From Ruminiclostridium sp. (GTDB lineage Bacteria; Bacillota; Clostridia; Oscillospirales; Ruminococcaceae), in NCBI GenBank assembly GCA_017635095.1, contig JAGBMA010000160.1, forward strand, positions 1 through 60,066: 60,066 bases of DNA, in the 5' to 3' direction. Shown here piece by piece: positions 31,510 to 39,744 of the stretch. Under the pieces are notes generated by a model. The model saw nothing but the letters and a program-made list of their open reading frames with translations, made no database searches and had not been told where the DNA came from. Position 1 is the stretch's first letter. Each line of letters opens with the position of its first letter. Both the position numbers and the translations under genes were made by a program.

Positions 31510-32199
31510 ATGAAACTGAAAGGCAAATATTCGGAGAGCTCGGTACTGCACGCGATAATCCTCGCTGCGGCTGCGGTCGTCTCGGTTGCAGTGTTCTTCG
31601 TCGTGCTCAACATTACCGGCAGCGAAGTCCCTAAGATAGAGCTCCCCTCGGCTGAGACTACGACCACGGCCGCTTCCTCGACGGAAGCCCCCGAAGAGGA
31701 TACCGGCTACAAGGCAGACAAGGATCTCGTGAACGAGATGTTTGACGCTGCGGAAGGTCTTATATACGGGAATTACACCGTTCTGAGGCTCTACTACACA
31801 AAGGGGCTCCCCCATGAGGACGAACCCTACGGAAATGAGCCCGAGGACGGCTATTACACCGTCGCGAGCGAAGACTACAGCTCGATAGACCAGCTCAACG
31901 AGATCGTTGACAAGACATATACAAAGGATCAGGCCAATGAGATCAAGACGGACCCCCTTGGCTACGGTGCGATCTATAAGACCCGTGACAACGGCACCCT
32001 CGGTATAATACAGAATTATACCCCTATGCAGTATGACCGTTCATGGGAGAACCCCAAGCTTGAGATCGAACCCCTGAGCGACACCGAGTGCGCAATAACC
32101 GTCACGATCCACGAAAAGTCCGATGACTCCGACGTGCCGCTCAACGCGGTCATGGTGAAGTCGGAAGACGGCTGGAGACTCACTTCCGTTATATTCTGA
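31510..32199 (+). CDS. Membrane-anchored extracytoplasmic protein leading the atp operon
   Basis: 229 residues, family not recognised. One N-terminal membrane helix (about 13-36, no lipobox) is followed by a Thr/Ser/Ala/Glu linker (45-65), then an extracytoplasmic domain rich in Tyr, Asp and Glu ending in a beta-like segment (ECAITVTIHEKS ... GWRLTSVIF). A GGGAG sits 11 bases before the ATG. It is downstream of the only clear operon promoter and 22 bases ahead of the atpZ-like gene, so it is probably co-transcribed with the ATP synthase. A role in enzyme assembly or membrane sensing is possible but not shown. Confidence 0.7.
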   Translation: MKLKGKYSESSVLHAIILAAAAVVSVAVFFVVLNITGSEVPKIELPSAETTTTAASSTEAPEEDTGYKADKDLVNEMFDAAEGLIYGNYTVLRLYYTKGLPHEDEPYGNEPEDGYYTVASEDYSSIDQLNEIVDKTYTKDQANEIKTDPLGYGAIYKTRDNGTLGIIQNYTPMQYDRSWENPKLEIEPLSDTECAITVTIHEKSDDSDVPLNAVMVKSEDGWRLTSVIF

Positions 32200-32221: not shown

Positions 32222-32539
32222 ATGGCAAAAAATAAAAAGGATAATCCGGTGGCAGTCTATGCGGTCGCAAGCCAGATCGGCTTTATCGTCATAACCCCGC
32301 TGCTCGTGTTCGTCATAGGCGGGACATGGCTGGTCGATAAGCTGGGGTGGCCGGACTGGCTCAATATCGTCTTCGTCGCCGTGGGTATAATATCCATGAG
32401 CGTCGGAGCTATGAACTACCTCAAAAAGCTCATAGCTATGTACGACAACAGCGAATCCGGCACGGGCGCTTCCGAAATAAAGCACGACAAGCGCGATCAC
32501 GACTACTACGACCAGTATTCCAAAAGCAAGAAACTATGA
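32222..32539 (+). CDS. atpZ: AtpZ/AtpI-type F1Fo accessory protein
   Basis: 105 residues. Two membrane helices (about 15-38 and 44-66) with the GGTWLVDKLG loop match the AtpZ/putative F0F1-ATPase accessory family, which is often encoded first in atp operons, particularly of Na+-dependent enzymes. The C-terminal tail is highly charged. Its stop overlaps the next ATG by 4 bases. Confidence 0.8.
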   Translation: MAKNKKDNPVAVYAVASQIGFIVITPLLVFVIGGTWLVDKLGWPDWLNIVFVAVGIISMSVGAMNYLKKLIAMYDNSESGTGASEIKHDKRDHDYYDQYSKSKKL

Positions 32540-32949
32540 GTTTAAAAATAAACAGATACACAGCCGAAGAGCTCAGGGCTATGCTCCCGTTTATTGCAGT
32601 CACCGACGGCGCCGTGCTCCTGGCTTCGGTATTGTTCGGGATATTTGCCGGGTTCGACTGGAGAATGTTCAGCGGGCTCGCAGCAGGGAATCTGCTGATG
32701 CTGGCGAACTTCGTCCTTATAGGCTATACCGTCGAAAGAACGCTCCGCTGCAGGGATTTCCGGCGGGCACGTTCGATAAGCAGCATCTCCTATGGGCTCA
32801 GATACGCGGGTCTTTTCGCGGCTCTCGCCGGACTGCTCACGATAAACGCGATCAATATAGTGACAGCTTTGCTGCCGCTTTTCTACCCTAAAATATACTA
32901 TACTTTTTTCTATGCGCTGACGCGCGGGAAGGATGATGGATCATGCTGA
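32536..32949 (+). CDS. atpI: ATP synthase subunit I (AtpI)
   Basis: 137 residues from the ATG at 32536 (ATGA overlap with atpZ). A longer in-frame reading back to 32347 runs through the atpZ gene and is rejected. Four hydrophobic helices (about 18-36, 40-58, 85-103, 106-128) and position before atpB fit AtpI, an assembly factor helping c-ring formation. It overlaps atpB by 7 bases. Confidence 0.8.
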   Translation: MSLKINRYTAEELRAMLPFIAVTDGAVLLASVLFGIFAGFDWRMFSGLAAGNLLMLANFVLIGYTVERTLRCRDFRRARSISSISYGLRYAGLFAALAGLLTINAINIVTALLPLFYPKIYYTFFYALTRGKDDGSC

Positions 32950-33697: not shown

Positions 33698-34024
<327 letters not shown>

Positions 34025-34597: not shown

Positions 34598-35146
34598 ATG
34601 GCAGGCTTAGTCGAAAAGACATACGGCGATGCACTTTTTGAGCTTATCCTCGAGGACGGAGCCGACAAGCTCCCCGCGGCAAAAGCGGAACTTGCGGCGG
34701 TAAATTCGATAATCACGGATATTCCCGAGCTTATAAAGCTGTCAAAGACCCCGACTGTCGAAAAAGAAGAAAAGCTCGGACTGATCGAGAGCGCCTTCAA
34801 GGGCAGGCTCTCCGAGTACATCTATAATTTCCTTATGGTGCTCATGGAAGCGAGCAGACTCGAATACTTCGGCAAAATAACCGAGTATTTCGGCGAACGC
34901 TGCAACGAACACCTCGGCATCGCCGAGATCACGGTCGTTACTTGCCAGCCCCTCAGCGAGAAGGCAAAGAAGGATCTCTCCGCGAAGATGGAGAAGCTCC
35001 TCGGCAAGAAGATCGAGATGAAGGAAGAGATCGATACTTCGATAATCGGCGGCATCGTCGTTAAAAACGGCAATACAACGCTTGACGGAAGCGTGAGGGC
35101 AAGACTTCGTGCCCTCAGAACAGATATCGGCAGCGTGATCTGCTGA
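34598..35146 (+). CDS. atpH: F1Fo ATP synthase subunit delta
   Basis: 182 residues. Connects the stalk to F1. The N-terminal helical domain (AGLVEKTYGDALFEL) and the C-terminal signature IDTSIIGGIVVKNGNTTLDGSVRARL (split in the family as the end of the second domain) are recognisable. A CCCG/CGGG hairpin lies in the gap to atpA. Confidence 0.95.
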   Translation: MAGLVEKTYGDALFELILEDGADKLPAAKAELAAVNSIITDIPELIKLSKTPTVEKEEKLGLIESAFKGRLSEYIYNFLMVLMEASRLEYFGKITEYFGERCNEHLGIAEITVVTCQPLSEKAKKDLSAKMEKLLGKKIEMKEEIDTSIIGGIVVKNGNTTLDGSVRARLRALRTDIGSVIC

Positions 35147-35200: not shown

Positions 35201-36703
35201 ATGGAATTACGCCCTGATGAAATAACAGGTATAATAAAATCCAAGATCAAGGCATTCGACTCCAAGATCACTCTCACCGATACGGGTACGGTAGTTACCG
35301 TCGGAGACGGTATCGTTCGTATCCACGGACTTGAGAACTGCATGATAAACGAGCTTCTCGAATTCGATAACGGTGTCCAGTGTATGGCTCTTAACCTTGA
35401 GCAGGATTTTGTCGGTGCGGTTATGCTCGGCTCCGACGCCGACATCAAAGAGGGTTCCAACGTAAAAAGAACGGGTAAGATCATATCCGTTCCGGTAGGC
35501 GACGCACTTCTCGGACGTGTAGTAAACGCGCTGGGTGAGCCTATCGACGGCAAGGGACCGATAGTTTCCGATGAATACCGCCCCGTAGAACGCATTGCGC
35601 CCGGTATCATCACAAGAAAATCCGTCGATACACCTTTACAGACAGGTATCAAGGCTATCGACTCGATGATCCCGATAGGACGCGGACAGCGTGAGCTTAT
35701 CATAGGCGACAGACAGACGGGTAAGACCGCTATCGCCGTCGATACTATAATCAATCAGAAGGATACAGATGTATTCTGTATCTACGTTGCCATAGGACAG
35801 AAGGCTTCCACAGTCGCGTCCGTGGTCGAACAGCTCACCAACGCAGGTGCGATGGACTACACGATCGTAGTATCCGCAACCGCGGCAGAGCTTGCACCGT
35901 TACAGTACATAGCACCCTACTCCGGCTGTGCTATGGGTGAATACTTCATGGAGAAGGGAAAGGACGCTCTCATAATCTATGACGACCTTTCCAAGCACGC
36001 AGTCGCTTACCGTGCGATGTCGCTGCTCTTAAAGCGCCCGCCGGGACGTGAAGCTTACCCCGGAGATGTATTCTATCTGCATTCAAGACTTCTCGAACGT
36101 GCAGCCAACCTCAACGAAGATTACGGTGGCGGTTCCCTTACCGCGCTCCCGATCATCGAAACACAGGCGGGCGACGTATCGGCATATATCCCCACAAACG
36201 TAATTTCTATCACCGACGGTCAGATATTCCTTGAGACAGAGCTCTTCAACTCCGGTATCAGACCTGCCGTAAACCCGGGTATCTCGGTATCCCGTGTCGG
36301 CGGCTCGGCTCAGATAAAGGCTATGAAGAAGGTATCCGGCTCCCTCAAGCTCGAATATTCCCAGTACAGAGAGCTCCAGGCATTCTCTCAGTTCGGTTCC
36401 GACCTCGACGCGGATACAAAGGCGCGTCTTGCAAAGGGCGAACGTATAGTTGCAGTATTAAAGCAGCCTCAGTCCTCACCGCTCAGCGTTGAAGACCAGA
36501 TCATCATAATCTTTGCCGTAATCAACGATTACCTCAAGGATATACCCGTTGATAAGGTACCGGAATTCGAGAAGGCACTCTTCGAGCACATGGCTTCAGA
36601 TCATGCAGAAATAATCGACGATCTGAAGAAGAACAAGGTGCTCTCCGCGGATAACGAGGAAAAGCTCAGAGCTGTCCTCAAGAACTTTGCGGCAAACTTC
36701 TGA
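35201..36703 (+). CDS. atpA: F1Fo ATP synthase subunit alpha
   Basis: 500 residues. Regulatory nucleotide-binding subunit of F1. Walker A is GDRQTGKTA (about 169-177), with the arginine-finger region [19 protein letters not shown] near 365. Length and order are typical. It is followed, after a gap of about 50 bases, by an unannotated 39-codon ORF. Confidence 0.98.
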
Positions 36704-36752
36704 AAATGCCCGCTGTAAGGTAAGCAAGAGCACAGACAAGAAAGGATAAATC

Positions 36753-36872
36753 ATGAGTAAAGCATCGTTCGTATTAAGTGTAATATCCATTAGCCTCACG
36801 GCTCTTCTGGCTTTGGCTGCGGTTTTCCTCTGCCTTACAAACAAGGTCGTTTATATCGACAGCGACCGCTGA
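36753..36872 (+). CDS. 39-residue single-TM protein inside the atp operon
   Basis: A short ORF between atpA and atpG, with AAAGGA 7 bases before its ATG, as good as its neighbours' SDs. The product starts MSKASFVLSVISIS, forms one strongly hydrophobic helix (about 5-28) and ends NKVVYIDSDR. Topology is probably N-in with a short external tail. The atpA-atpG gap (218 bases) is otherwise empty, and the ORF is in an operon of membrane-complex subunits. The tail faintly recalls the KIAYVDS start of Skp/OmpH-like proteins, so a truncated relic is an alternative. No family is recognised; function unknown. Confidence 0.6.
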   Translation: MSKASFVLSVISISLTALLALAAVFLCLTNKVVYIDSDR

Positions 36873-36921
36873 ACGAACAACTCCCGCGGGCAACTGCGGG
36901 ATCGTGAAAGGAATGGGATAA

Positions 36922-37782
36922 ATGGCTACGGGCAACATGAAGGACATAAAGCGCCGTATAAAGAGCGTCGGCTCGACAAGACAGATAACGAAAGCTATGG
37001 AACTCGTCGCGTCGTCAAAGCTCAGAAAGGCTAAGCAGCGCTCGGAAAGCGGACGTCCTTACTTTGAAGCACAGTATGAGCTGCTCGCGGAAATTGCGTC
37101 GGTAAAGAAGGATTTCAGCACGATCTTCACCGAGGAGCGTGAGATAAAGAACCGCTTGTTCATCGTCATCGCAGGTGACAGAGGACTCGCGGGAGGCTTC
37201 AACTCGAATATACTGAAAGCGGCTGCCGCAGCGCATAAGGACGATCCGGTAAAGCCGAAGATAATAGCGATCGGCAGAAAAGCCGTTGACTACTTCGACA
37301 AGCACGGTTATGATGTGGTCGCGAAATATCCGTACTTCGCGGAAAAAGCAAAGACCGCACACTGCATGGACATAGCCCAGATAGCCGTAGATCTTTTCGC
37401 TGTGGGCGAAGTCGATGAAGTCGAGCTGTTCTATACGGCGTTCGTATCGCCGCTCGTGCAGACCCCCGAGTGCGCAAAGCTACTCCCGATAGCAAATATC
37501 GGCGAAGGAACGGGTGAGGACCTCGGGCTCATAAACTATGACCCCTCACCGGAAGCGGTATTCGACAGAGTGCTCCCGAAGTTCCTTATGAGCATGATAA
37601 GCTGCGCGGTCGTTGAGTCTTTCGCCTCCGAACAGGGTGCGAGACGCACGGCAATGGAGAGCGCAACGGACAACGCGGACGAGATGATCGCAAACCTCTC
37701 GCTCGTATATAACCGCGCAAGACAGGAGAAGATCACCAATGAGATCACAGAGATCGTCTCCGGCGCAAATGCGTTAAGTTAA
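36922..37782 (+). CDS. atpG: F1Fo ATP synthase subunit gamma
   Basis: 286 residues. Central rotor shaft. The N-terminal coiled-coil helix has IKRRIKSVGSTRQITKAMELVASSKL (classical signature region) and the C-terminal helix ends with ERTAMESATDNA-like sequence (RRTAMESATDNADEMI) and NKARQxxITxE-like NRARQEKITNEI. The upstream gap contains a CCCGC/GCGGG hairpin. Confidence 0.97.
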   Translation: MATGNMKDIKRRIKSVGSTRQITKAMELVASSKLRKAKQRSESGRPYFEAQYELLAEIASVKKDFSTIFTEEREIKNRLFIVIAGDRGLAGGFNSNILKAAAAAHKDDPVKPKIIAIGRKAVDYFDKHGYDVVAKYPYFAEKAKTAHCMDIAQIAVDLFAVGEVDEVELFYTAFVSPLVQTPECAKLLPIANIGEGTGEDLGLINYDPSPEAVFDRVLPKFLMSMISCAVVESFASEQGARRTAMESATDNADEMIANLSLVYNRARQEKITNEITEIVSGANALS

Positions 37783-37802
37783 CAGATACCAGATAATTTC
37801 GC

Positions 37803-39315
<1,513 letters not shown>

Positions 39316-39333
39316 CCGAAAGGGCGTGAGGAA

Positions 39334-39744
39334 ATGACTCCGTTTAAACTACAGATAATCACTCCGGACGGCGTGTTCTTTGACGGAATGACCGAAAATG
39401 TCATCGTCCGCACGACTGTCGGAGACAAGGGTATCCTTGCACACCACGAGCCATATGTTGCAGCCCTGACTATAAGCAAGTTCAAGGTGAAGATAGACGG
39501 CGAATTTCGCTACGGCGCGATCTCGTCGGGCGTTATAAAAGTGGGTAAGGACAAGACTGTTATCCTCGCACAGAGCTGTGAATGGGCGGACGAGATCGAC
39601 GTTGACCGCGCGGTGAGGGCAAAAGAACTTGCCGAGAGCCGCATAAGCGAGTACGAAAAGGCCAACGATCAGAAGAACCTCGATATCGCCGAGTTCAAAC
39701 TCAAACGTGCGCTTAACAGAATAGAAGCCGCTAAAATGCAATAA
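39334..39744 (+). CDS. atpC: F1Fo ATP synthase subunit epsilon
   Basis: 136 residues. Rotor subunit and inhibitor: N-terminal beta-sandwich (PFKLQIITPDGVFFDG, GDKGILAHHEPYVAAL) and C-terminal helical hairpin (about 88-136). It is the last operon gene, followed at 39751 by a strong terminator. Confidence 0.96.
   Translation: MTPFKLQIITPDGVFFDGMTENVIVRTTVGDKGILAHHEPYVAALTISKFKVKIDGEFRYGAISSGVIKVGKDKTVILAQSCEWADEIDVDRAVRAKELAESRISEYEKANDQKNLDIAEFKLKRALNRIEAAKMQ

What the first reader, a model, noticed from the sequence alone, without database searches (positions are those of the whole stretch)
36753..36872. Unannotated 39-residue membrane protein between atpA and atpG
A short ORF with a good SD and a single strong transmembrane helix lies in an otherwise empty gap of the ATP synthase operon. 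Standard gene callers would miss it. No standard F1Fo subunit is encoded at this place. It might be a small accessory or regulatory subunit, or a relic of an Skp-like protein (tail VVYIDSDR).
Basis: partly seen in the sequence, partly recalled or inferred. Interest (0 to 1): 0.7.

Follow-up and report, generated by a model that had tools for sequence, protein, structure and literature searches.

The report
Small membrane protein in ATP-synthase operon
A tiny membrane protein of about 40 amino acids is encoded inside the ATP-synthase operon of a group of mostly uncultured bacteria; it is a real, conserved gene that probably makes an extra accessory part for the ATP-making machine.

Summary
Window 36753-36872 (+) encodes 39 residues with its own Shine-Dalgarno and one hydrophobic segment, in the 218-nt atpA-atpG gap. 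It is a genuine gene. Of 71 genomes of the window's genus, 64 carry it at this junction, 3 have the junction without it, 4 could not be judged. In the sister genus 41 of 43 genomes have a profile hit. Samples of the family, order and class gave no strong hit outside these two genera. Among 73 other named Clostridial loci, 70 have atpA and atpG within 91 nt. An AtpA+AtpG tree needs two changes, most simply one gain and one loss. dN/dS is 0.10-0.15 in five clades (p<1e-21). Length (34-42 aa), the first half of the helix and one juxtamembrane Tyr are conserved. No Pfam, NCBIfam or PDB relative was found. All standard subunits plus AtpZ and AtpI are present, so this is an extra gene. Best explanation: a lineage-specific accessory or assembly subunit of the membrane sector, working as CydX does for cytochrome bd. 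Association with the enzyme is inferred, not shown. The Skp-relic idea is rejected.

The parts
36740..36746 (+). Shine-Dalgarno GAAAGGA of the small ORF
   Evidence: read directly; similar purine-rich sites precede many orthologues
36753..36872 (+). 39-residue single-pass membrane protein gene, the finding
   Evidence: conservation; purifying selection
36762..36839 (+). predicted membrane-spanning segment (residues 4-29); in 66 distinct relatives residues 4, 5, 9, 12 and 16 are always small
   Evidence: hydropathy of orthologues; column counts; extent of the helix is inferred
36852..36854 (+). codon of Tyr34, invariant in an alignment of 44 diverse members that allows gaps in the tail
   Evidence: nearly invariant, 90% or more, in the earlier 23-row alignment
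35201..36703 (+). atpA (alpha subunit), upstream neighbour
   Evidence: recognised by conservation in relatives, not run against Pfam
36922..37782 (+). atpG (gamma subunit), downstream neighbour with its own Shine-Dalgarno at 36906-36912
   Evidence: PF00231
32222..34576 (+). atpZ (PF09527), atpI (PF03899, start codon assumed), atpB, atpE, atpF: Fo sector with both known accessory genes
34598..35146 (+). atpH (delta subunit, PF00213)
33767..34024 (+). atpE (c subunit): two-carboxylate Na+-type motif plus Asp58, an acid shared by the clade
   Evidence: motif numbering from PMC3692424 (passages)
37915..39744 (+). atpD and atpC, rest of the operon

Best explanation
The ORF is a real protein-coding gene for a single-pass membrane protein of about 40 residues. 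It most simply arose once in the common ancestor of two related genera of Clostridia and was kept in the atp operon (shown by sequence comparison). Its product most likely works as a lineage-specific accessory subunit or assembly factor of the membrane sector (Fo) of this probably Na+-coupled ATP synthase. The helix would pack through its small-residue positions against an Fo subunit or the AtpZ/AtpI proteins, with the conserved basic residues and the invariant Tyr placed at the membrane surface (inferred). The working model is CydX in cytochrome bd oxidase: a tiny single-helix subunit, with no sequence relation claimed, encoded in the operon of the complex it belongs to.
For: Coding: omega 0.154 (14 rows) and 0.135, 0.134, 0.122, 0.101 in four other clades (13, 9, 10 and 8 rows). 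Length 34-42 aa from the aligned start in the 72 distinct sequences. Position: 64 of 64 genus genomes with a profile hit below E 1e-7 have it between atpA and atpG, and so have all 20 sister-genus junctions that were read (these 20 were found through profile hits). In one search no genome has a second hit below E 1e-3. Two changes, most simply one gain and one loss, on a 139-row tree. All standard subunits plus AtpZ and AtpI are present, so it replaces none of them. Residues 4, 5, 9, 12 and 16 are small in 66 of 66 peptides, as would suit helix packing. Tyr34 is invariant in 44 of 44. In the three genomes that lost it, AtpZ (ratio 1.32), AtpG (1.20) and AtpI (1.18) are more diverged than in five sister genomes, while AtpA, AtpD and AtpC are not or hardly (1.02, 1.07, 1.00).
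Against: Vertical inheritance alone keeps a gene in place, so a fixed position is not proof of a shared function. One lineage lost it and kept its ATP synthase genes, so it is not indispensable everywhere. It is less constrained than atpG in each clade used (0.154 against 0.043; 0.135/0.084, 0.134/0.065, 0.122/0.056, 0.101/0.095). The conservation and small-residue moments along the helix were not significant (permutation p 0.81 and 0.18). The rate shift in the losers is one event, rests on 3 against 5 genomes, and also appears in the upstream 229-aa protein (1.19) and weakly in H, B, E and F (1.09-1.12; the F row of one sister was an 11-residue fragment). The clade's c-subunit Asp is kept in the losers, so it does not depend on the small protein.
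Confidence: 0.55

Rival explanations
1. A real small membrane protein with a general membrane role (for example stress or lipid-related) that sits in the atp operon only for constitutive co-expression and does not touch the ATP synthase.
For: Other unrelated genes occur in the same gap in some relatives: 75-99 aa, 176-194 aa and 237 aa proteins, so the junction tolerates hitch-hikers. Its loss in three genomes left the atp genes in place.
Against: The other genes are sporadic, whereas the small ORF is in 64 of 67 readable junctions of the genus. No second hit below E 1e-3 lies elsewhere in any of the 71 genomes.
Confidence: 0.3
2. A leader or spacer ORF whose translation tunes the alpha-to-gamma ratio; the peptide itself does not matter.
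For: It lies between a gene needed in three copies per complex and one needed in one copy (stoichiometry recalled).
Against: The amino-acid sequence is under purifying selection. The distance from its stop to atpG varies from 12 to 742 nt and another gene may lie between. atpG has its own Shine-Dalgarno in the window.
Confidence: 0.08
3. A small hydrophobic toxin of the type I kind.
For: Size and single hydrophobic helix. Two terminator-like sites lie on the minus strand just downstream (36901-36882 and 36978-36966; mean 0.4 in shuffles), as an antisense transcript starting elsewhere might use.
Against: One copy per genome, kept inside the atp operon through two genera. No promoter-like site on either strand in 36600-37000. 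No antitoxin RNA was sought.
Confidence: 0.03
4. A relic of an Skp-like protein.
For: Only the tail VVYIDSDR, a resemblance recalled.
Against: No OmpH/Skp hit in Pfam at E 1; equally short and constrained in relatives; the tail varies between lineages.
Confidence: 0.01
5. Chance ORF, not a gene.
For: Short ORFs are common.
Against: Present in 64 of 67 readable junctions; omega 0.10-0.15.
Confidence: 0.01

Closest known systems
CydX / CydY / CydZ of cytochrome bd oxidase (PMC4325964, abstract and passages seen)
   Same: tiny membrane proteins encoded in the operon of a bioenergetic membrane complex, few conserved residues, tied to clades; strong ribosome-binding sites are reported there for CydY
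   Different: a different complex and no sequence relation looked for or claimed; CydX is reported as required for its enzyme, here nothing is shown experimentally
AtpZ (PF09527) and AtpI (PF03899)
   Same: small membrane proteins of the atp operon outside the core enzyme; [quoted passage not shown]
   Different: both are present separately upstream in the window; the small ORF has no Pfam match to them
AtpTheta (atpT) of cyanobacteria (PMC9241938, abstract and passages seen)
   Same: a small lineage-specific protein acting on an F-type ATP synthase
   Different: a regulator that prevents ATP hydrolysis in cyanobacteria; that it is not a single-helix membrane protein and lies outside the atp operon is recalled, not tested
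KdpF of the Kdp potassium ATPase (named in passages of PMC10903887)
   Same: small membrane protein that is a subunit of an ion-motive ATPase
   Different: P-type ATPase, unrelated operon; its function is recalled

Membership tests
Standard F1Fo subunits (a, b, c, alpha, beta, gamma, delta, epsilon) | match to the Pfam family of a subunit | tested here: not met
   no such match at E up to 1 for the window ORF and three relatives; the subunits are encoded separately
AtpZ / AtpI | match to PF09527 or PF03899 | tested here: not met
   no match; AtpZ and AtpI lie at 32222-32949
Skp / OmpH-like chaperones | match to the OmpH family | tested here: not met
   no match
Skp / OmpH-like chaperones | long coiled-coil body after an N-terminal hydrophobic segment (recalled) | tested here: not met
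   the ORF ends 5-13 residues after residue 29 in the 72 distinct sequences
CydX-like small accessory subunits (works-like comparison, not a homology claim) | single hydrophobic helix, under about 50 aa, encoded in the operon of the complex | tested here: met
   (L181, about 65 aa, is the exception in length)
CydX-like small accessory subunits (works-like comparison, not a homology claim) | present in the purified complex and needed for its activity | not testable with these tools
   needs biochemistry
CydX-like small accessory subunits (works-like comparison, not a homology claim) | presence coupled to a feature of a core subunit, as CydX is to the long Q-loop of CydA (PMC4325964) | tested here: inconclusive
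   c-subunit Asp58 is in 22 of 22 distinct ORF-bearing and 3 of 3 ORF-less members of the clade, in 0 of 28 other family members and 2 of 65 named Clostridia; it marks the clade but is not lost with the ORF

The most novel reading that the evidence does not exclude
A bacterial supernumerary Fo subunit of a kind not described before: a 40-residue helix added once to a Na+-type rotary ATP synthase whose rotor, in the same clade, carries a further carboxylate per c subunit (Asp one helical turn before the ion-binding Glu). The small protein would serve this altered rotor or its assembly together with AtpZ/AtpI.
Probability: 0.15. Interest if true: 0.8.

Novelty: new variant of a known kind. Interest (0 to 1): 0.55.

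Why it matters
Bacterial F-type ATP synthases are usually described as a fixed set of eight kinds of subunit with a few small helpers (recalled). A constrained extra membrane peptide, kept in the operon through two genera, would be a lineage-specific further part or assembly factor. It can be tested directly by mass spectrometry or cryo-EM of one purified enzyme. It also suggests that operons of core machines still gain small genes that family databases do not describe.

Tried and rejected
Skp relic: rejected. Cis-acting leader: disfavoured by variable spacing (12-742 nt) and amino-acid constraint. Weak profile hits outside the clade (E about 4e-6 to 1e-3 and above): 13 of them were looked at and read as ordinary hydrophobic segments, several of them near the end of longer frames; none of these 13 loci (about 2-3 kb each) holds atpA or atpG. 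They are not counted as relatives. The searches of order, family and class scored at most 18-19 candidates per genome, so their negatives are not exhaustive. Helical moment tests of conservation and of small residues did not reach significance. PDB profile search gave one hit at E 0.82, taken as chance. Own-genome context: an RnfC above the family cut-off and a V-type subunit D are present; this did not decide the function. A scan for discriminating sites gave 4 in F, 5 in Z, 1 in E and 1 (a gap) in B, none in I, A, G, D or C; with one gain on a long branch they carry little weight, and Z rested on only 2 ORF-less rows.

Rows dropped: nine loci with short or partial proteins (listed), besides any with a gap outside -10 to 3000 nt and duplicates; L181 (extended N-terminus) and L004 (one-residue deletion); L181 from the window clade. 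The sixth clade (6 rows) gave a saturated fit (omega 0.006, scale 15) and is not used. One search read the junction of 20 sister-genus genomes; the two genomes without a hit (G822, G845) were not examined further. In one search the rows under genus None, Ruminococcus and Butyrivibrio are false handle matches from record titles and are ignored.

Full report
WHAT IS THERE. The ORF lies at 36753-36872 on the + strand, with ATG start, TGA stop and 39 residues MSKASFVLSVISISLTALLALAAVFLCLTNKVVYIDSDR. GAAAGGA at 36740-36746 gives a Shine-Dalgarno six bases before the ATG. The atpA stop is at 36703 and atpG starts at 36922 with its own Shine-Dalgarno. The operon is atpZ-atpI-atpB-atpE-atpF-atpH-atpA-ORF-atpG-atpD-atpC. 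Nine of its genes were recognised by Pfam, AtpA by its conservation in relatives. No standard subunit is missing that the ORF could replace.

IS IT A GENE. With the single peptide, 28 of 60 genomes (own included) gave a match at E 10. Of 30 loci fetched, 24 (the window and 23 relatives) lie between atpA and atpG and 6 do not. A profile of their 23 distinct peptides (A1) hits 64 of the 71 genomes of the genus at E below 1e-7. All 64 were confirmed at the atpA-atpG junction. Of the other seven, three gave no AtpG match (G015, G086, G091) and one has atpG 107 nt from a contig start (G072), so these four cannot be judged; three (G002, G067, G068) have the junction without the ORF.

In the sister genus (g32) 41 of 43 genomes have a profile hit at E up to 0.001, one of them partial. 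The 20 junctions read there all have it, but they were found through hits. Samples of 394 genomes of the order, 396 of the family and 391 of the class gave hits below E 1e-6 in these two genera only; at most 18-19 candidates per genome were scored in those searches. Thirteen weaker hits were inspected and have no atpA or atpG beside them.

Among 80 named loci, the 7 closest by AtpG (at least 63% identity) carry the ORF. Of the other 73 (AtpG at most 56%), 70 have atpA and atpG separated by -3 to 91 nt. L117 has 348 nt with an unrelated 85-aa protein; L114 lacks atpA on the contig; the AtpA of L120 was not resolved.

A tree of AtpA plus AtpG (139 rows, quick IQ-TREE, LG+G4) puts all 69 ORF-bearing rows in one clade of 72 with full SH-aLRT support. 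The label needs two changes, most simply one gain at its base and one loss in a nested group of three. The nearest named group outside holds Ruminococcus albus and relatives.

Selection was measured with a one-ratio codon model on an atpG tree. In the window's clade (14 rows, 39 codons) omega is 0.154, 2dlnL 143, p 6e-33; atpG itself gives 0.043. Four other clades of 13, 9, 10 and 8 rows give 0.135, 0.134, 0.122 and 0.101, all p below 1e-21; their atpG values are 0.084, 0.065, 0.056 and 0.095. So the ORF is constrained, though less than atpG. A sixth fit (6 rows) was saturated and is not used. In one relative (L181) the usual start is gone and the frame opens upstream at an ATG with a Shine-Dalgarno, giving 65 aa.

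ANATOMY. Across 72 distinct ORF sequences the length from the aligned start is 34-42 residues. In 66 peptides residue 3 is K, R or Q in 65. Residues 4, 5, 9, 12 and 16 are always small, while 6, 8, 10, 11 and 15 never are. This would suit helix packing, but moment tests at 100 degrees were not significant (p 0.81 and 0.18). Tyr34 is invariant in 44 of 44 diverse members when the tail may carry gaps, even in the lineage whose tail changed to ...KKYY; in the first alignment of 23 it was nearly invariant. Orientation in the membrane is unresolved, as both ends are basic. No family matches above cut-off in Pfam or NCBIfam, and the PDB gave only E 0.82.

HOW IT PROBABLY WORKS. The window's c subunit carries E29, E62, T63, T64 and Y67, which correspond to Glu32, Glu65, Ser66, Thr67 and Tyr70 of the two-carboxylate Na+ rotor of Fusobacterium nucleatum (PMC3692424, passages). 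So the enzyme is probably Na+-coupled; this is inference. In the clade position 29 is E in 19 and Q in 3 of 22 ORF-bearing c subunits. A lineage-specific helix encoded among the subunit genes, in addition to AtpZ and AtpI, is best read as an accessory or assembly subunit of the membrane sector.

Two weak hints point there. In the three ORF-less genomes AtpZ, AtpG and AtpI are more diverged than in five sister genomes (ratios 1.32, 1.20, 1.18), while AtpA, AtpD and AtpC are not or hardly (1.02, 1.07, 1.00). The upstream 229-aa protein is also shifted (1.19), H, B, E and F lie between (1.12, 1.10, 1.09, 1.09), and this is one evolutionary event. Secondly, c-subunit residue 58, one helical turn before the ion-binding Glu, is Asp in 25 of 25 distinct c subunits of the clade (22 with the ORF, 3 without), against 0 of 28 in the rest of the family and 2 of 65 in named Clostridia. 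It marks the same clade but is kept after loss of the ORF, so it does not require the peptide.

KNOWN RELATIVES IN KIND. CydX, CydY and CydZ show the pattern: tiny membrane proteins, each tied to a clade of cytochrome bd operons (PMC4325964, abstract and passages). AtpTheta shows that small lineage-specific proteins can act on ATP synthases (PMC9241938, abstract and passages). Literature searches for a small protein in this place listed 12, 0, 6, 0 and 0 papers; judged by title and start of abstract none describes this one. The library is open-access only, and global small-protein catalogues were seen in a listing but their tables were not searched.

VERDICT. The gene is shown; its product's association with the ATP synthase is inferred at about even odds.

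Noticed in passing
window 33767-34024 (atpE) and c subunits of the clade: Asp58, one helical turn before the ion-binding Glu62, adds a carboxylate near the rotor's ion site. It is Asp in 25 of 25 distinct clade members, 0 of 28 other family members and 2 of 65 named Clostridia.
   Followed up: partly
window 31510-32199: A 229-aa protein with an N-terminal hydrophobic segment and no family (no Pfam at E 0.001; NCBIfam only E 0.01 to a lectin model) lies directly upstream of atpZ and has a match (27-72% identity) upstream of atpZ in 20 of 20 operons examined: a second possible uncharacterised companion of this ATP synthase.
   Followed up: partly
atpA-atpG gaps of relatives, e.g. L017, L019, L020, L059, L185 (75-99 aa), L007, L008, L044 (176-194 aa), L011, L037, L039 (237 aa): Unrelated uncharacterised genes lie in the same gap in some relatives, on either side of the small ORF; the 75-99 aa kind accompanies the lineage whose small protein ends in KKYY, among others.
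   Followed up: no
L206, L207, L208 (genomes G067, G002, G068): The three genomes that lost the small ORF have long AtpG proteins (299, 321, 318 aa against about 285) with an insertion before the YDPSPEAVF motif; close ORF-bearing sisters L209 and L210 also have longer AtpG (309 and 296 aa).
   Followed up: partly
window genome G000, C15 and C93: The genome also encodes an RnfC above the family cut-off and a V-type ATPase subunit D, so it probably has two kinds of rotary ATPase.
   Followed up: no
window 37783-37914: The atpG-atpD gap (132 nt) holds no plus-strand ORF of 30 aa or more but an inverted repeat, seen by eye, near 37804-37822.
   Followed up: no
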